A DNA stretch of 6,565 nucleotides from an uncultured bacterium (GTDB lineage: Bacteria > Chloroflexota > Anaerolineae > JACIWP01): contig CAIQJD010000521.1 of NCBI GenBank assembly GCA_903872005.1, positions 1-6,565 of the forward strand, in the 5' to 3' direction. Both the position numbers and the translations under genes were made by a program. The first letter of the stretch is position 1. The number at the start of each line of letters is the position of its first letter. Shown piece after piece: positions 1 through 6,565 of the stretch. The notes beneath the pieces were generated by a model. The model saw nothing but the letters and a program-made list of their open reading frames with translations. It was not told the origin of the DNA and made no database searches.

Positions 1-276
1 AATTAGCCGGCCGTCGAGATCTTTCAGCCTGAAGTCGGGAGCCGGCCTACCGTCCACCGCCGGCTCCAGGGCCGCCGGTTCCGCTTCATCGGTCGCCTTT
101 TCCGATGGCTCTTCTGCGATGGGAGGCGTGGGTTGTCTGGATGCCGGCGCCGATGGGACGGCGCTCACGCGGCCGGCGAGTGGGTTGCACCCCGTCAGCG
201 TTGCCAGCAACGCCACGAGGATCAGCGTCTCCATGATCCATAGCGCCCTTTTCCGAACAGATGGCTTCGTCATCAT
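1..276 (-). CDS. Lipoprotein with thioredoxin/redoxin-like domain, N-terminal part (3' end outside window)
   Basis: Read on the minus strand, 92 codons stay open from ATG at 276 to the window edge. The N-terminus is a lipoprotein signal peptide: a basic stretch (KPSVRKR), a hydrophobic core, and a lipobox LTGC with the lipidated Cys at residue 30. A Pro/Ala/Glu-rich linker of about 40 residues follows. Then comes GRPAPDFRLKDLDGR, the usual opening of AhpC/TSA and TlpA/ResA-type redoxins (compare GxxAPDFxLxDLxG). The protein is therefore probably a membrane-anchored extracytoplasmic thiol-disulfide oxidoreductase, for example for cytochrome c maturation or disulfide reduction. The CXXC active site would lie beyond the window, so catalysis is inferred. 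Starts are ambiguous: a second ATG follows directly at 273, and an in-frame ATG lies upstream at 291 across a run of eight G. A G-rich ribosome site fits 276 best. Confidence 0.75.
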   Translation of the reverse strand, partial: MMTKPSVRKRALWIMETLILVALLATLTGCNPLAGRVSAVPSAPASRQPTPPIAEEPSEKATDEAEPAALEPAVDGRPAPDFRLKDLDGRLI

Positions 277-306
277 GCTCGCCCCCCCCATGTCTATCTG
301 GACGAC

Positions 307-343: not shown

Positions 344-372
344 TTGACAGATGCGACGAATTCGGGTATAAT
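344..372 (+). promoter_or_regulatory. Perfect-consensus sigma-70-type promoter
   Basis: TTGACA (344-349) and TATAAT (367-372) are separated by exactly 17 nt; both hexamers match consensus at all positions. The expected start is G379. No coding region follows within 500 bases; an RNA-like segment ending in an intrinsic terminator does. The strength and position point to a small RNA or a long structured leader. Confidence 0.85.
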
Positions 373-378
373 CTCTCT

Positions 379-555
379 GTACCTGAATAATTGAATGAAT
401 GCATCTCCGAGCTTCGTCTGCCTAACGGTCTGGCCGGCCTATGGAGTCGAAGCCGATAGGGTGTCGTGGGAAACCATGTCGCCTCCCGTGTTTGGAAAGG
501 AGAAAGGCTGACCGGTCTTCGCGCGGCGTCTCCGAATAGAGACGCCGTTTTTGTT
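379..555 (+). ncRNA. Candidate structured small RNA or leader RNA, family not recognised
   Basis: The segment is bounded by a perfect promoter (start about 379) and an intrinsic terminator (524-552), predicting an RNA of about 175 nt. Several helices can be drawn. GCTTCG (411-416) pairs with CGAAGC (448-453), extending inward past a U-U mismatch. A stem at 460-469/474-483 is capped by a GAAA tetraloop (470-473) and includes one U-U mismatch. As an alternative, CGGTC-U-GGCC (426-435) can pair with GGCTGACCG (506-514), enclosing the tetraloop hairpin like a riboswitch P1. I compared it by memory with 6S RNA, SRP RNA, RNase P RNA, T-box and common riboswitches and found no convincing signature. 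It could be a stand-alone regulatory RNA or the sensor part of a leader for downstream genes. Confidence 0.5.
524..555 (+). terminator. Intrinsic terminator 1 (end of candidate ncRNA)
   Basis: A 9-bp GC-rich stem (524-532 with 539-547) and a 6-nt loop are followed by TTTTTGTT (548-555). It lies about 145 nt after the expected start of the promoter at 344-372. Confidence 0.85.
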
Positions 556-583: not shown

Positions 584-623
584 GCGCGGCATCTCCTGTT
601 CCGAGATGCCGCGCTTTTTGTTT
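584..623 (+). terminator. Intrinsic terminator 2, near-copy of terminator 1
   Basis: A 12-bp stem (584-595 with 603-614) and a 7-nt loop are followed by TTTTTGTTT (615-623). The stem core GGCATCTC/GAGATGCC differs from terminator 1 (GGCGTCTC/GAGACGCC) by one base pair changed on both sides. The flanking CGCGCGGC and TTTTTGTT are shared, so the two look duplicated with pairing preserved. Confidence 0.85.
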
Positions 624-706
624 AACAATACCCCCTGTTACCCTCCATTCGGCGCGACTCCCCCTTCTCGACCCAGGAAGGGGGAGTCGCCCGGCGGGTT
701 CGCCGG
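622..706. repeat. Hairpin module A (first of two tandem diverged copies)
   Basis: The module contains, in order: a small hairpin TAACA (623-627)/TGTTA (636-640) around a C-rich loop; the shared segment 631-650 (five C, then TGTTACCCTCCATTC); a perfect 12-bp stem 656-667/677-688, extended by two more pairs; the loop TCGACCCAG (668-676); GCCCGG (689-694); and a second hairpin CCGGCG (691-696)/CGCCGG (701-706). It has no T-tract, so it is not a terminator. No protein reading is convincing. Compare with module B at 756-843. Orientation and function are unknown. Confidence 0.65.
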
Positions 707-755
707 CCGGGAGGGCGCGGGGCTTTTCCTGGGCAGGTTGCCCTGTCCGTTTCCT

Positions 756-843
756 TTGACATATTCCCCCCTGTTACCCTCCATTCTGCGGTACATCCTT
801 CGCCTCGACCCAGGGCGAAGGATGTGCCCGGAGGATCCCCCGG
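756..843. repeat. Hairpin module B (second copy, stem rewritten, loop unchanged)
   Basis: The copy starts 136 bp after module A. The shared 20-base segment recurs exactly at 767-786. The main stem 793-804/814-825 is again 12 bp and perfect, but its sequence (ACATCCTTCGCC) is unrelated to that of copy A. The 9-nt loop TCGACCCAG (805-813) and the following GCCCGG (826-831) are identical. The small 5' hairpin is kept with one G-U-compatible change (TGACA/TGTTA), and the outer CCGG/CCGG pairing of the 3' hairpin is kept (828-831/840-843). This conservation pattern favours a structured RNA or a folded DNA site over simple sequence homology. Confidence 0.65.
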
Positions 844-863: not shown

Positions 864-892
864 TTGCTCCGGCTGTCGTTCTGATGTATACT
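864..892 (+). promoter_or_regulatory. Putative promoter of the pyrC-pyrB-rlmN operon
   Basis: TTGCTC (864-869), 17 nt, then TATACT (887-892): the -10 matches 5/6 and the -35 only 3/6. The expected start is A899, which leaves a 155-nt leader before pyrC containing a leader ORF and a terminator hairpin. A weak -35 is typical of promoters assisted or tuned by a regulator, but no operator was identified. Confidence 0.5.
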
Positions 893-928: not shown

Positions 929-1057
929 ATGCGACCGGTTGGAGCGGGGCCATCCGCTACGTTGAACGAAACGATGAAGACGCTCAAGAGAACTTTTCTC
1001 TTGAGCGTCTTTTTGCGCCTGCCGGCGCGGTTGGTGAGAGAGGCGCACCGAAGATGA
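929..1057 (+). CDS. Possible leader peptide of the pyr operon, 42 aa
   Basis: ATG at 929 is preceded by AAGAGG (916-921) at an ideal 7-nt spacing, about 30 nt downstream of the predicted start at 899. The frame gives a 42-residue basic peptide rich in Arg and Leu. It runs through the terminator hairpin (977-1011), and its TGA (1055-1057) overlaps the pyrC ATG (1054-1056) as ATGA. This layout resembles E. coli pyrL, a 44-codon leader spanning the pyrBI attenuator. A ribosome on this ORF would disrupt the terminator and could deliver ribosomes to pyrC. Unlike pyrL, no long U-rich pause tract precedes the hairpin. The peptide itself probably has no function. It could also be a chance open frame. 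Confidence 0.35.
   Translation: MRPVGAGPSATLNETMKTLKRTFLLSVFLRLPARLVREAHRR
977..1014 (+). terminator. Intrinsic terminator/attenuator directly upstream of pyrC
   Basis: A perfect 14-bp stem (977-990 with 998-1011), extendable by two A-T pairs into the loop, ends in TTTTT (1010-1014). It lies about 80 nt after the predicted start at 899 and 39 nt before pyrC, so it must be bypassed for operon expression from that promoter. The 7-mer TCAAGAG of the left arm (984-990) also occurs at 914-920 and could pair with the right arm as a weak competitor. Control by UTP level, a protein or the leader ORF cannot be decided from the sequence. Confidence 0.8.
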
Positions 1058-2121
1058 GCATGTTGACTTTGCCGGCGTTGGTGGACGCGCATGTCCATTT
1101 CCGCGAGCCGGGCGGGACGCACAAAGAGGATTTTGATAGCGGGACGCAAGCGGCGTTGGCCGGCGGGATCAGCGTCGTGCTGGAGATGCCCAATACCAGG
1201 CCGCCGACGGTGGATGCTGCGACGCTGGCAGAAAAAGAGCGCGTGGCGGCGCAGAAGGCGCATTGCGATTTTGGCCTGTTCGCGGGAGCGACGGAGGAGA
1301 ACGCGCCGGCGTGCGCGGCGCTGGGCGGCCGGCTCGCCGGCCTGAAGATCTATGCCGGGCCGACCTACGGGCCGCTGATGTTGAGCGAGCTGCCGGCGTT
1401 GATGGCGCACTTCACGACCTGGGCCGGGCCAGGGCCGATTGCCGTGCATGCCGAGGGAGCGATGCTGGCCGTCGCCATCGCGTTGGGGCGCGCCTATCGC
1501 CGGCCGACGCATCTGTGCCACGTCAGCCGCGCCTATGAGATCGAGCTGATTCGGCGCTCGAAAGCGGAAGGCGCGCCCATCACTTGTGAGGTCACGCCGC
1601 ACCACCTGTTCTTGACAGAGGATGATGCGGCGCGGCTTGGCCCGCTGGGGCACATGAAGCCGGCTTTGGGCAGCGCGGCAGACGTGGACGCGCTTTGGCG
1701 CAATCTGGATGTGGTAGATATCTTCGCGACCGATCATGCGCCGCACACGCTGGCGGAAAAGCGAGGCGAGAATCCTCCGCCGGGCGTGCCGGGCGTGGAG
1801 ACGATGCTGCCGCTGTTGCTGACTGCCGTGACGGAAGGACGCCTGATGTTGGGGGATGTCGTGAGCCGGCTGCATGACGGGCCGGCGCGCGTTTTCGGGC
1901 TGCGCTTGCCGCCGGCAGAGACGGTTATTGATGATGCGGCCGTCTGGGAAATTGGCAACGAGCCGCTGTTCACGCGTTGTGGATGGACTCCCTTTGCCGG
2001 GATGCGCGCCACGGGGCGCGTGGTCAGCGTGAAGCTGCGCGGCGAGTTGGCATATCGGGATGGTCGGGTGCTGGCGCCAGCCGGCTTTGGGAGAAATGTG
2101 CGGATGGCGCTTCTCAGTTAG
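1054..2121 (+). CDS. pyrC: Dihydroorotase, CAD-like type
   Basis: The 355-aa cytoplasmic amidohydrolase interconverts N-carbamoyl-L-aspartate and dihydroorotate, step 3 of UMP synthesis. Visible active-site elements are the HxH metal motif (H13, H15) with R17, N47 in MPNTRPP, carbamylated Lys K98 (AGLKIY), metal His H132 and H156, the CEVTPHH segment, and catalytic Asp D227 in ATDHAP. The length and many segments ([39 protein letters not shown]) strongly recall the dihydroorotase domain of animal CAD; this comparison is from memory. AGAGG at 1039-1043 supports ATG 1054, with ATG 1060 as a weaker alternative. It is preceded by an attenuator-like leader and followed after 35 bp by pyrB. All key residues are present, so the enzyme is predicted to be active. 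Confidence 0.95.
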
Positions 2122-2156
2122 TCACTCATACGGACGACGACATTAGGAGGGTCGAA

Positions 2157-3146
2157 ATGTATCAGAGCAGTGAGTTCCAGAGTCTACGCGATGTCGCCAT
2201 GCCGGCGGACAATGTGAATAATGGGCTGTACGGACAGGATATTCTGTCGGTGAAGCAGTTCGACCGCCGGCTGCTGGAATATGTGTTGAGCATTGCCGAG
2301 GAGATGCGCGGCTTGGTGCGCCGGTTCGGCAAGGCCAATTTGTTGGAAGGGAAGATTCTCGCGAATCTGTTCTATGAGCCGAGCACACGCACCAGCGCCT
2401 CGTTTCAGGCGGCCATGTATCGCCTGGGAGGGCGCTGCATTAACATCAGTGAAGTGCGCTATTCGTCGGTGACCAAGGGCGAGTCGTTGCCGGATACGGT
2501 GCGTACCCTGGAGAGCTACTGCGATGTGATTGTGTTGCGCCACCCGGAGACCGGCTCGGCGGCTATTGCGGCGAAGTATGCGCGCAAGCCGGTGATCAAT
2601 GCCGGCGACGGCACCGGCGAGCATCCGACGCAGGCGCTCCTTGATCTGTACACGATCAAAGATGAGTTGCGGTCGCTCGACGGCCTGAAAGTGGCGATGT
2701 TGGGCGACCTCAAGTATGGCCGCACGGTGCATTCGCTGACGCGCCTGTTGAGCAAGTTCGATACGGAGTTCACGTTCGTCTCGCCGGATAGCCTGCGGAT
2801 GCCGGAGCAGTTCTTGCAGGAGCTGGATCAGACTGGGCACAAGTATCAGTTGCAGACGGATGTTCATGCGGTGATTGATCAGGTGGATGTGTTGTATGTG
2901 ACGCGCGTGCAGCGCGAGCGGTTCGAGGATCCGAACCAGTACGAGACGGTGAAGGATTTCTACGTGATTTCGCCGGAGCTGATGGCGCGGGCGAAGCCGA
3001 AGATGATCGTGATGCACCCCTTGCCGCGCGTCTTCGAAATTGACATGCGTGTGGACGATGATCCGCGCGCGGCGTACTTCCGGCAGATGGAGAACGGCAT
3101 GTACATGCGTATGGCGCTCCTGGCGGGGGTCCTGGGCAAGGCATGA
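2157..3146 (+). CDS. pyrB: Aspartate carbamoyltransferase catalytic subunit
   Basis: The 329-aa enzyme condenses carbamoyl phosphate with aspartate, step 2 of UMP synthesis. Key motifs are STRTS (76-80) for carbamoyl phosphate, K107 in TKGES, RHP (128-130), GEHPTQ (154-159), GDLKYGR (183-189), TRVQRER (249-255) and HPLPR (287-291). An N-terminal extension of about 20 residues precedes [16 protein letters not shown] (2145-2150) lies 6 nt before ATG 2157; the frame is open farther upstream, but inside pyrC. Several segments, including [10 protein letters not shown] and the DPRAAYFRQ...ENGMY...RMALLA C-terminus, closely recall the ATC domain of animal CAD. F293 stands where E. coli has Asp271, whose contact with Tyr240 stabilises the T state. 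No regulatory chain pyrI is seen nearby, so the enzyme may be unregulated or controlled through another partner. Confidence 0.95.
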
Positions 3147-3173
3147 TGTGGCCCATCGGGCGGCCGGAAACGA

Positions 3174-4277
3174 ATGGGTGATGAAATGCCCGCTGATGAA
3201 CGGGTGAGGTTGCTGGAACTGGATCGGCCGGCGCTCACCGCTCTTTTGCAGGGGTGGGGAGAGCCGGCCTATCGCGCCGGGCAGCTCTGGGCGTGGCTAT
3301 ATCGTGATCTGGCGACGGATTTCGCCGAGATGACGAACTTGCCGGCCGGCTTGCGCCAGAAGTTGGCGCAGGGCGCTGCGTTGGCAACGGTCGCTGCGCT
3401 GGAGGAGATTGGCTCCGCGGATGGCGAGACACGCAAGGTCCTGTTGGAGCTGGGCGATGGGGAGACGGTGGAGAGTGTGCTGATGCTCTATGCCCGCCGG
3501 CGCACGGCCTGCATTTCCACGCAGGTGGGCTGCCCGATCCGTTGCCCATTTTGCGCTACCGGACAGGCCGGCTTGATTCGCAATCTGAGCGCCGGCGAGA
3601 TTGTGGCCCAGGCGCTCTATCTGGCGCGGCTTGCCCGACCGCTGGCGCCGGCCGGCGAGCGGCCGTTGACCAATGTGGTTTACATGGGGATGGGCGAGCC
3701 GTTGCTCAATTACGAGGCCACGCTCCGCAGTGTGGAGGTACTGAACGACGGCGCCGGCTTCGGTCTGGGGGCGCGCCAGTTCACCATTTCGACGGCGGGC
3801 GTGGCGCCGGCGATCCGTCGGTTGGCCGGGGAGGCGCTGCAGGTCAACCTGGCTGTCTCGCTCCATGCGCCGGAAGATGCGCTGCGCGATCAACTGACGC
3901 CATTGAACCGCCGGTATCCCATCGCTGAGGTCATGGATGCTGTGGATTACTACATGGGGGTGACCGGGCGACGGGTGACGTTCGAGTATGCGCTGATCGC
4001 CGGCGTCAACGATGCCCTTGAGATGGCTGAGGCGTTGGGGCGGCTGCTCGCCGGCAAGCTGGCGCACGTGAATCTCATCCCGGTCAATCCGGCCGAAGGG
4101 AGCGCGCTGCGGCCCACGCCGCGCGAGCAGGTGGATGCTTTTGCGGAGATCGTGCGCGGCCGGGGCGTGGCGTGTACCGTGCGGTTGCGGCGTGGGATTG
4201 ATGTGCAGGCCGGTTGTGGGCAGTTGCGGAGCCGGCGACGTCGTGCGTTTGACGCTCCCGCGCCGCCGGTTGTATAA
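3174..4277 (+). CDS. rlmN: Dual-specificity 23S rRNA A2503 / tRNA A37 C2-methyltransferase (radical SAM)
   Basis: The 367-aa radical-SAM enzyme methylates C2 of A2503 in 23S rRNA; E. coli RlmN also modifies A37 of some tRNAs. The [4Fe-4S] cluster motif is C120-x3-C124-x2-C127 ([13 protein letters not shown]). The two mechanistic cysteines are C113 (TACIST) and C348 (the methylated Cys, in DVQAGCGQL). GMGEPLLNY (172-180) is the family signature for SAM binding. Length is normal for RlmN. Both cysteines and the QxGC context favour RlmN over Cfr, though Cfr relatives share this architecture. Start is uncertain: ATG 3174 has only a poor G-rich ribosome site, and ATG 3186 is preceded by GGGTGA. 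It follows pyrB by 27 bp and probably shares its transcript; a link to pyrimidine synthesis is not expected. Its stop codon lies inside the trpS promoter. Confidence 0.95.
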
Positions 4278-4278
4278 T
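4249..4278 (+). promoter_or_regulatory. Promoter of trpS embedded in the 3' end of rlmN
   Basis: TTGACG (4249-4254), an 18-nt spacer, then TATAAT (4273-4278), giving a predicted start at A4285 and a 27-nt leader before trpS. The -10 box contains the rlmN stop codon TAA (4275-4277). The short leader leaves no room for a T-box, so trpS seems not to be tRNA-attenuated here. Confidence 0.75.
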
Positions 4279-4311
4279 GCGCCCACTGTATTTTGCCGAG
4301 GAGAGGGACGG

Positions 4312-5409
4312 ATGACAGAGGAGACGAGTCCGACGACGCCGGCGAAAAAGCGCATCTTGACGGGCGACCGGCCTACGGGGAAGCTCCACCTGGGGCACTA
4401 CGTGGGGTCGTTGGTCAACCGCGTGCGGCTGCAGGACGAATACGAGTGTTTTTTCATCATCGCGGATTTGCACACCTTGACGACGAAGTCGGAGAAGGAT
4501 GATGTTGCGCAGATTGGCGACAATCTGCATGAGATGGTGTTGGACTACCTGGCATGTGGGATTGATCCCAACAAGGCGACGATCTTCTTGCAGTCGAGCG
4601 TGCATGCTATCTATGAGATGAACCTGATCTTCGAGATGCTGGTGACGGTCAACCGGCTGAATCGCATCCCGGACATCAAGGACATGGCGCGGGCGGCGCA
4701 GATGGATGACGAGACGATGCCCTTCGGTTTGTTGGGCTATCCGGTGTTGCAGACGGCGGATATCCTGATGCCGCGCGCCCATCTGGTGCCGGTTGGCAAG
4801 GACAACGAGTCGCACGTGGAGTTGACGCGCGAGATTGCCCGGCGCTTCAATCGCCAATACGGCGAGGTGTTTCCGCTGCCGGATGTGCTGTTGAGCAACG
4901 TGCCGACGCTGGTCGGGACGGATGGGCAGGCCAAGATGTCGAAATCGCTGGGGAACGCCATCTTTCTGTCGGACGACGCGAAGACGGTACGCAAGAAAGT
5001 GTTCAGCATGTACACGGACCCCAATCGCATCCGCTCGGATATCCCAGGCACGGTGGAGGGGAACCCGGTTTTCGTGTATCATGATGTCTTCAATGGGGAC
5101 AAGGTGGAAGTGGATGACCTGAAGGCGCGTTACCGGGCCGGCACGGTGGGCGATGTGGAGGTCAAGGAGCGCCTGAGCGAGGTGTTGAACGCGTTCCTGG
5201 ATCCGATCCGCGAGCGCCGGACGGCGTTTGGGGCGCACAAGGGGCTGGTGGAGCGCATCGTTTTTGAGGGGACGGAACGGACGAATGTCGTCGCCAATGA
5301 GACTCTGGCGGCGATGAAGCAGGCCATGGGGCTGCGCACACTGCACAATCGGATTCGACGCAAGGCGGAAGAGGCCATCAAGGCCGAAGCGAAGGGGAAG
5401 CCGGCATAG
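4312..5409 (+). CDS. trpS: Tryptophanyl-tRNA synthetase
   Basis: The 365-aa class I synthetase charges tRNA-Trp in the cytoplasm. It carries the HIGH-type motif HLGHY (26-30) after GDRPTGK, the tryptophan pocket segment [10 protein letters not shown] (143-152, with the indole-recognising Asp at 150), [19 protein letters not shown], and the KMSKS loop (208-212). Length is some 30 residues above the common 334-aa form, from an N-terminal tail of about 13 residues, small insertions and a basic, alanine-rich C-terminus. AGGAG (4299-4303) lies 8 nt before ATG 4312; the open frame extends upstream but only overlaps rlmN in another frame. It has its own promoter and terminator, so it can be expressed separately from the pyr operon. 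Confidence 0.95.
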
Positions 5410-5432
5410 CGGTATCTCGATCTATGGCGCGG

Positions 5433-5474
5433 ACGGTCGCAGCCAGTGGCTTACTGGCTGCGACCGTTTTTGTT
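5433..5474 (+). terminator. Intrinsic terminator after trpS
   Basis: A perfect 14-bp stem (5433-5446 with 5454-5467) and a 7-nt loop are followed by TTTTTGTTT. It lies 23 bp after the trpS stop. On the minus strand no T-tract follows the hairpin, so it does not obviously serve the convergent lysX gene, whose stop is at 5495. Confidence 0.9.
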
Positions 5475-5494
5475 TGCCGGCAGCGTCACGGCGG

Positions 5495-6343
5495 TCAGGC
5501 GCGGCCTTCGCCCACAGCCACGACGTAGTCCATCATCCGGCCGGGGATATTCACTCCGGTGGTCTGGATGCTGTTGCGGAATTCCATCGTGTAGTTCACT
5601 TCATTGACCAGCAAGCCGCGATCGGGGTCTTCCAGCAGGTCAATGGCGACAATGCCGCCGCCGACTGCTTTGGCCGCGGCGCGACTGAGGTTGTCAATTT
5701 CCGGCGTGATCGGGCAATTAGATGCCTTGCCGCCACGCGCGGTGTTGGTGATCCAGTGCTCGGCGTTGCGGTAGATGGCGCAGATGGTCTGATCGCCAAC
5801 GACGAAGGAGCGGATGTCGCGGCCGGGCTTCTTGATGTATTCCTGGATGTAGTAGATGGAGTGAATGTAGGAGCCGAGGGTGGACTTGTGTTGCAAGACG
5901 GTTTCGGCGGCATCGCGATCGTTGATCTTGGAGAGGAGCCGGCCCCAGGAGCCGACGACCGGCTTCATGACGCAGGGGTAGCCGAGCTGCTCGATGGCTT
6001 CCAGGGCGGACTCTTCCTCGAAGGCGATAATGGTGCGGGGGGATGGGACGCCGGCGCGGATCAAGGCTGACGTGGTCAATAGCTTGTTGCCGCAGGTATC
6101 GGCGACTTGGTAGGTGTTCACGGTGGGGATGCCCCAGTCGCCGAAGATACGCAACGAGTGTAGGGCGCGGGAGTGCTGGATGCAGCGCTCCATGACGACG
6201 TCCCATTTGCGAATGGGGCGATCCATGGGCATGATGAGGGTGCGGTCGTCAATCAATTCAAAGTCCAGACCGCGTCGCTCGCACTCTTCGGTGAGCAGTT
6301 TCTCTTCGGCGCGGACACGGGAGAGCAAGATGCCGATTTTCAT
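5495..6343 (-). CDS. lysX: LysW-dependent amino-acid ligase, LysX/ArgX type (ATP-grasp)
   Basis: The 282-aa RimK-family ATP-grasp enzyme links the alpha-amino group of alpha-aminoadipate (LysX) or glutamate (ArgX) to the C-terminal Glu of carrier protein LysW, starting carrier-bound lysine or arginine synthesis. Nucleotide and metal elements are K87 (GNK), K127 in [15 protein letters not shown] (165-169), PGRDIR (173-178), NTARGG (200-205), D235 and NEVN (247-250). MEFRNS and TTGVNIPG near the C-terminus closely resemble Thermus LysX. Substrate choice between the two types cannot be fixed from these motifs by eye. ATG 6343 is the only reasonable start and gives the usual family length; AGGAGG (6356-6361) lies a rather long 12 nt upstream. 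No lysW gene is in the window, and the remaining pathway genes are presumably outside it. Confidence 0.88.
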
Positions 6344-6407
6344 GATCGCGAAGATCCTCCTGGGTAGGTCGTGTACAGGGCGGCGCGCCGGCGGGCAGCG
6401 CGCGCCG

Positions 6408-6565
6408 TCATTCGTCGAGAGCGGGACAGGCCGGCAGCGGCTCGAACAGGACGCCTTCGTCCAGCATGGCGGCCAACTCGTCGGCAGGGCCGCATTCGGC
6501 CGGCGGCAAGCCGGCGCGAGACGGCAGTGGAGCAAGCGGCGTCGGGGGGCGGCGCAGAGCCGGCG
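6408..6565 (-). CDS. C-terminal fragment of an unrecognised protein (5' end outside window)
   Basis: On the minus strand a frame is open from the window edge to TGA at 6410-6408, giving 51 residues. The first part is Pro/Arg/Ala-rich; the end is acidic and mixed ([17 protein letters not shown], then two prolines and LDE). This composition and the GC-rich third codon positions make it the most gene-like of the three minus-strand frames. The other two are open but Arg/Cys-rich, as out-of-frame readings of GC-rich DNA tend to be. It ends 64 bp upstream of lysX and is probably co-transcribed with it. It lacks the EDWGE-type C-terminus of LysW, so it is not that carrier. Function unknown. Confidence 0.45.

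What the first reader, a model, noticed from the sequence alone, without database searches (positions are those of the whole stretch)
622..843. Two tandem hairpin modules with rewritten stems but an invariant 9-nt loop
Copies A (622-706) and B (756-843) share an exact 20-base 5' segment, the loop TCGACCCAG and a GCCCGG 3' flank. Between these, the 12-bp stems are perfectly paired in both yet have unrelated sequences. A small 5' hairpin (TRACA/TGTTA) and a 3' CCGG/CCGG hairpin are also kept. Pairing kept while sequence changes, with loop and flanks fixed, is what selection on a folded RNA or cruciform-like DNA site produces. The modules have no T-tract and match no family I recognise. They sit between a strong RNA promoter and the pyrC promoter, so a ligand- or protein-sensing tandem leader, a processive antitermination element, or a dispersed genomic repeat are all possible.
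Basis: partly seen in the sequence, partly recalled or inferred. Interest (0 to 1): 0.78.

Follow-up and report, generated by a model that had tools for sequence, protein, structure and literature searches.

The report
Tandem RNA hairpins behind Moco riboswitch
Two near-copies of a folded, probably non-coding RNA element lie just downstream of a molybdenum/tungsten-cofactor riboswitch and its terminators with no gene of their own, which suggests, but does not prove, that the cofactor sensor controls a regulatory RNA instead of a protein.

Summary
The tandem hairpins are real: A 623-706 and B 757-843 share an exact 20-nt segment, a 9-nt loop and the 3' flank; the main stem keeps 14 of 14 pairs although 7 of 14 changed on both sides. 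A strong Rfam Moco riboswitch (393-518, 72.7 bits), of the P3-less form that the literature links to tungsten cofactor, sits behind a 12/12-consensus promoter and is followed by two similar intrinsic terminators; the second is strikingly complementary to the aptamer's 3' strand, as an antiterminator needs. The repeat unit is larger than described: a terminator-like hairpin with T-rich tract before each module also aligns. No plausible ORF lies between riboswitch and pyrC, which has its own promoter region and attenuator, shared with relatives. Best reading: a cofactor-gated non-coding RNA with tandem binding modules, laid out like EutX/Rli55. No other copy was found (exact pattern in the GTDB 220 species genomes; model in samples of 396 class and 400 phylum genomes). 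The organism's own genome is not held, so a dispersed DNA repeat, a decayed leader or template-switch upkeep of the stems remain possible. Function is inferred from layout only.

The parts
344..372 (+). promoter TTGACA-17-TATAAT
   Evidence: 12 of 12 consensus matches, the only site found in 280-1100
393..518 (+). Moco/Tuco riboswitch aptamer without P3 (RF01055)
   Evidence: 72.7 bits against cut-off 36, E 1.3e-16, P3 columns gapped
491..510 (+). aptamer 3' strand, candidate antiterminator strand
   Evidence: duplex energies with T1 and T2
523..548 (+). intrinsic terminator T1
   Evidence: 10 pairs plus T tract; aligns with T2, 0 of 500 shuffles as good
584..614 (+). intrinsic terminator T2, start of repeat unit 1
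   Evidence: 12 pairs plus T tract; -19.4 kcal/mol with the aptamer 3' strand
623..706 (+). module A: TRACA/TGTTA, C-rich linker, 14-bp stem with loop TCGACCCAG (668-676), CCGG-N8-CCGG
730..749 (+). weak terminator-like hairpin plus T-rich tract, counterpart of T2 in repeat unit 2
   Evidence: 8 pairs, 5 G-C; 712-756 aligns with 580-622, 0 of 500 shuffles as good
757..843 (+). module B, same anatomy, 15-bp stem, loop 805-813
864..892 (+). probable pyrC promoter, shared with relatives; taken as the right-hand limit of the element
   Evidence: by eye against L089 and L091; not reported by the consensus scan
977..1011 (+). pyrC attenuator/terminator hairpin, possible 3' end of a read-through RNA
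   Evidence: 16-bp inverted repeat; shared with relatives

Best explanation
The modules are the effector part of a non-coding RNA gated by a molybdenum/tungsten-cofactor riboswitch. Shown: a consensus promoter, a strong P3-less Moco aptamer, two related terminators (T2 strongly, T1 weakly complementary to the aptamer's 3' strand), then two tandem units of terminator-like hairpin plus module, and no plausible ORF before pyrC, which has its own promoter region. Inferred: with cofactor bound, P1 closes, the antiterminator strand is hidden and RNA ends at T1/T2; without cofactor, 491-510 pairs with the 5' side of T2 (and T1), polymerase reads on and makes a longer RNA carrying A and B. The fixed ACCC-centred loops and C-rich linker, on stems free to drift, then bind a protein or antisense target in trans, in the manner of EutX/Rli55. 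The partner and the regulated genes (probably Mo/W uptake or use) are guesses.
For: RF01055 match, 72.7 bits. Promoter 12 of 12. T2 complementarity to the aptamer 3' strand -19.4 kcal/mol, best site in 515-1050 (next -14.2), none of 1829 control windows from 1055-6540 at or below -15; 1 of 1000 mononucleotide shuffles as good for T2, 5 of 1000 for T1. T1 and T2 align, 0 of 500 shuffles as good, with a compensatory G-C to A-T pair. Stem pairs 14 of 14 kept, 7 with double change. Loop bases ACC unpaired with probability 1.00 in both modules. Both non-Watson-Crick pairs fit the + strand only. Neither long frame across the modules has a homologue. The pyrC promoter region (by eye) and attenuator are shared with relatives whose upstream neighbour is another gene. 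Of 30 related aptamer loci fetched, 22 could be anchored by script; none of the 22 has an exact direct repeat of 14 nt within 450 nt downstream. With a second anchor rule 22 of 30 were anchored, 1 ended at a contig edge, and in 20 of the other 21 an ORF of at least 80 aa starts within 192 nt, against 551 nt to pyrC in the window. EutX/Rli55 precedent: one passage of PMC5821096.
Against: No second locus has the layout, so nothing shows conservation of the combination. The minimum-energy fold of 379-622 has P1, T1 and T2 all formed and no antiterminator; read-through would have to be kinetic. T1 complementarity is not exceptional: 2.7% of control windows reach -11.6 and T1 ranks fifth in its own region. 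No clear terminator follows B before the pyrC attenuator, so the RNA's 3' end is unknown. The modules could be cis elements, or the riboswitch may simply have lost its gene. Perfect stems can be kept by template switching without selection (PMC8794818, abstract seen). In A the C-rich CCCUCC is predicted paired.
Confidence: 0.36

Rival explanations
1. Dispersed extragenic DNA repeat (REP/BIME- or MITE-like): tandem palindromic units that happen to have landed behind terminators in the space between the riboswitch and pyrC; folding matters for DNA mobility, not for an RNA function.
For: Tandem, palindromic, extragenic, located after terminators; the region is not syntenic with relatives; no relative outside this locus, as expected of a lineage-specific repeat.
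Against: Only two copies in the 6565-base window; stems half rewritten between neighbouring copies while loop and flank are fixed, unlike recent repeat copies; both G-U pairs favour + strand RNA; 0 exact-pattern matches in genome contigs. Copy number in the host genome could not be tested.
Confidence: 0.24
2. Relic or cis-acting leader: a Moco/Tuco riboswitch with duplicated terminator-plus-module units that once (or still, through read-through into pyrC) controlled a downstream gene in cis; the modules are part of a multi-step attenuator, and the original Mo/W gene was lost in a rearrangement.
For: T1, T2 and the 730-749 hairpin form a series of terminator-like elements; relatives have the same aptamer with one terminator and then a transporter or moaA-like gene; the pyrC side is conserved and the left side is not.
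Against: pyrC has its own promoter region and attenuator, so control by Mo/W has no obvious use; paired stem changes with fixed loops imply continuing constraint rather than decay; no module follows the aptamer in the related loci examined.
Confidence: 0.21
3. Sites for a DNA-binding protein or recombinase: three successive palindromes per copy, two copies 136-137 bp apart (about 13 helical turns), acting as double-stranded or extruded DNA.
For: Each copy holds TRACA/TGTTA, the long inverted repeat and CCGG-N8-CCGG; start-to-start spacing 136-137.
Against: A double-strand binder would not tolerate half-rewritten stems; the G-U pairs are mismatches as palindromic DNA. Two spacings are too few to argue phasing.
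Confidence: 0.08
4. A tandem duplication kept perfectly paired by template-switch mutation, without any function of the fold.
For: Template switching can create and repair perfect stems (PMC8794818, abstract seen); half of the pairs changed with none broken.
Against: Does not explain why the 20-mer, the loop and the 3' flank stay identical while spacers after the modules are not alignable.
Confidence: 0.07

Closest known systems
EutX/Rli55 (AdoCbl riboswitch-gated ncRNA that sequesters EutV)
   Same: Promoter, riboswitch with a terminator at the end of the aptamer, non-coding tail with hairpin binding sites, no ORF (as described in the PMC5821096 passage).
   Different: Another aptamer class; two 84-87 nt modules instead of small hexaloop hairpins; loop is not A1/G4; no partner protein known; transcription not shown.
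Moco/Tuco riboswitch RF01055 with terminator expression platform
   Same: Aptamer is a member by score; P3-less type; terminator right after the aptamer as in relatives L133, L134, L140.
   Different: Two related terminators, then tandem modules and no Mo/W gene.
REP / BIME extragenic palindromes
   Same: Palindromic, extragenic, tandem, behind terminators.
   Different: Far longer than 20-40 bp, stems half rewritten, not found in other genomes searched. REP size and tags taken from the abstract of PMC3733652 in a search listing.
Small RNAs with C-rich seeds (RsaE/RoxS type; recalled, from no call)
   Same: Conserved C-rich segment containing CCUCC, complementary to a Shine-Dalgarno core.
   Different: In A the CCCUCC is predicted paired with GGAGGG, so seed accessibility is doubtful.

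Membership tests
Moco/Tuco riboswitch RF01055 (393-518) | covariance-model score above the gathering cut-off | tested here: met
   72.7 against 36 bits
Moco/Tuco riboswitch RF01055 (393-518) | located upstream of a Mo/W transport, cofactor synthesis or enzyme gene | tested here: not met
   next credible gene is pyrC, 551 nt after the anchor in the aptamer's 3' strand
Tuco subtype of the Moco riboswitch | absence of the P3 stem | tested here: met
   alignment; criterion from passages of PMC2408646, which infer but do not prove Tuco binding
EutX/Rli55-like gated ncRNA (by layout) | riboswitch, terminator and non-coding tail on one transcript | tested here: inconclusive
   elements present in that order; transcription cannot be tested here
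EutX/Rli55, ANTAR substrate | hexaloop hairpins with A1 and G4 | tested here: not met
   loop TCGACCCAG, or hexaloop GACCCA if C-G closes; criterion from a PMC8934654 passage
REP-like dispersed repeat | many copies in the host genome | not testable with these tools
REP-like dispersed repeat | copies in related genomes | tested here: not met
   no genome of the window's own genus or species is known to be among them
any Rfam family, for the modules | score above the gathering cut-off | tested here: not met
   14 matches up to E 10 in 600-870, all below cut-off

The most novel reading that the evidence does not exclude
A tungsten/molybdenum-cofactor riboswitch that controls a trans-acting non-coding RNA: tandem modules with fixed loops on freely drifting stems capture a regulator only when cofactor is scarce. 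It would be an independent invention of the EutX principle with a new aptamer and a new binding module.
Probability: 0.25. Interest if true: 0.8.

Novelty: new variant of a known kind. Interest (0 to 1): 0.5.

Why it matters
The one riboswitch-gated regulatory RNA that I read about here senses cobalamin (EutX/Rli55). If this locus works as inferred, the same logic exists for Mo/W cofactor, and the module would be a new RNA-binding target whose partner could be fished out. It also shows that hairpins that look free-standing can belong to a riboswitch about 100-240 nt upstream.

Tried and rejected
Exact pattern TGTTACCCTCCATT-gap 8 to 36-CGACCCAG in genome contigs and viral contigs: 0 and 0. CTGTTACCCTCCATTC alone in viral contigs: 8 contigs; with model R1 the best were 18.2 and 15.2 bits, judged chance. 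Same 16-mer with up to 2 mismatches in 12 related genomes: 11 matches against 15 of the reversed control; 0 of 3 in the family of G096.

Model R1: 3 genomes held of the order of G096, 4 matches at E up to 10, best 17.2 bits; 396 class genomes, 2 matches at 27.4 and 27.0 bits; 400 phylum genomes, 1 match at 29.5 bits. I judged these chance: none keeps the loop or the 20-mer. The two large runs used stricter filters, are samples drawn from larger groups, and share some genomes, so they are not 796 distinct ones. R1 on the 30 fetched riboswitch loci: 3 matches up to E 5, best 12.3 bits.

Loop TCGACCCAG: 55 occurrences in the 199 sequences then held; only the two in the window are closed by more than 6 pairs. 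Of 71 occurrences in G096, G038 and G070 I held DNA for 30. BLAST of 560-860 in those three genomes: short matches only, best E 0.125. Plasmids and phages: no match for 300-1060 in plasmids; for 615-850 weak matches covering at most 22% (plasmids) and 20% (phages). Protein readings across the modules: no homologue. Left-hand frame 1-291 in the three nearest genomes: 1 weak match, E 0.086, so no synteny shown. ANTAR substrate rejected on loop sequence. Integron attC considered from memory and dropped, no core motif by eye.

In one search, 8 of 30 loci had no anchor and L135 ended at the contig edge, 8 of 30 (not the same eight) had no anchor. In one search L137 counted as having no near ORF, yet a moaA-like frame is readable by eye nearer the aptamer. 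Pfam was run on 9 of the 21 next ORFs.

Full report
What is there. The window is a bacterial chromosome fragment with pyrC at 1054-2121, followed by genes that I read by eye as pyrB, rlmN and trpS (names recalled, not tested). Its PyrC is 99% identical to one unnamed protein and 62% to an entry named Anaerolineae bacterium. Among 396 genomes drawn from the class of G001 (the genome of L001, Candidatus Thermoflexus sinensis) the nearest by PyrC are G096 and G038 (72%) and G070 (70%). These three are all that is held of their order. The organism's genome is not held.

The finding. Modules A (623-706) and B (757-843) are confirmed. They share 20 exact bases, the 9-nt loop and a 3' CCGG-N8-CCGG block. 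The main stem is 14 bp in A and 15 bp in B, not 12. All 14 aligned pairs are standard in both; 7 changed on both sides, 1 on one side, 6 not at all. Sliding the 3' partners by 1 to 3 columns drops pairing over the whole structure to 40-50%; with only two sequences the shuffle control (8 of 500 as high) is modest. Stem positions are 13 of 28 identical, others 48 of 56 (counted). The two non-Watson-Crick pairs, G758-U775 and U792-G826, are wobbles on the + strand and mismatches on the - strand. This favours + strand RNA, though two pairs are few, and folding energies do not separate the strands.

The context that was missed. Rfam finds a Moco riboswitch at 393-518 (72.7 bits). Its P3 stem is missing; Regulski et al. 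report that 17 of 19 organisms with P3-lacking RNAs also carry tungsten-cofactor genes (PMC2408646, passages seen). A 12-of-12 promoter lies at 344-372. Two terminators follow, T1 523-548 and T2 584-614, which align with each other (0 of 500 shuffles as good) and differ by a compensatory pair. The aptamer's 3' strand (491-510) pairs with T2 at -19.4 kcal/mol; the next best site in 515-1050 reaches -14.2, and none of 1829 windows from 1055-6540 reaches -15. T1 is weaker: -12.0, fifth in the region, and 2.7% of control windows reach -11.6. The minimum-energy fold of 379-622 shows P1, T1 and T2 together, not the antiterminator, so the switch, if real, is kinetic. In G096, G038 and G070 one aptamer is followed by one terminator close behind whose 5' arm reads UCUCCUUU in G096 and G038, complementary to AAAGGAGA (by eye), and then a permease gene (BPD_transp_1 for L133); the second aptamer of each precedes a moaA-like gene (by eye).

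The repeat unit. The 45 bases before module B (712-756) align with T2 and its T-tract (580-622) better than 500 of 500 shuffles; a local test of nearby stretches was weaker (36 of 500 shuffles as good). Each unit is thus probably terminator-like hairpin, T-rich tract, module. The second hairpin (730-749; 8 pairs, 5 G-C) is weak. The spacers after the modules are not alignable (330 of 500 shuffles as good).

No gene for the riboswitch. The two long frames across the modules have no homologue, and no other credible frame lies between T2 and pyrC. The pyrC promoter region (about 864-892, by eye against L089 and L091; the consensus scan did not list it) and the attenuator 977-1011 (85-89% over 46-47 nt) are shared with relatives, where the upstream neighbour is a different gene (mutS-like by eye). 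In the related loci that I could anchor, an ORF usually starts within 192 nt (20 of 21); of 9 such proteins run against Pfam, 4 carry a molybdopterin or Moco-synthesis domain and 3 are solute-binding or permease components, the others ABC_cobalt and DUF362. So the window's riboswitch appears to be an orphan whose only regulated product would be RNA.

Search for relatives. No credible second copy was found; Tried and rejected lists the searches and counts. Absence is informative for the genomes searched, not for the window's own genus, of which none is known to be held.

Mechanism. I prefer a cofactor-gated non-coding RNA, like EutX/Rli55 in layout (PMC5821096, one passage). Shown: the elements, their order, the T2 complementarity, the pairing. 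Inferred: transcription through the modules, direction of control, action in trans, partner. It is not an ANTAR substrate by loop sequence (PMC8934654, passages). Cautions: perfect stems can be maintained by template switching (PMC8794818, abstract), and CCCUCC of A is predicted paired to GGAGGG with probability 0.82-0.84, which argues against a simple open seed there.

Verdict. A real, unusual and so far unique locus; a new variant of a known kind if the reading holds. Six answered paper searches listed nothing that I recognised as a Moco-riboswitch-gated regulatory RNA, but I saw only top listings, one abstract page and passages of three papers, so this is no claim that none is in print.

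Noticed in passing
window 977-1011: Strong hairpin plus T5 before pyrC, shared with the pyrC leaders in L089, L090 and L091: a probable pyrimidine attenuator of this order.
   Followed up: partly
G038 C54 (L160), G070 C69 (L159): In two of the three nearest genomes a Moco riboswitch lies about 8 kb from pyrC; in the window it stands directly upstream of pyrC on the same strand.
   Followed up: partly
G378 C292, G106 C6, G179 C46, G002 C28, G094 C88: Pairs of Moco riboswitch matches within about 600 bases of each other; 155 of 396 class genomes have a match at E 0.001, 147 over the cut-off.
   Followed up: no
G002 C30, G163 C332 and C102: PyrC matches contain one in-frame TGA in both genomes; frame error or recoding not examined.
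   Followed up: no
window 1-291, - strand: Start of a lipoprotein-like, possibly thioredoxin-like reading frame (by eye) divergent from the riboswitch promoter; no Pfam match for the 97 residues present.
   Followed up: partly
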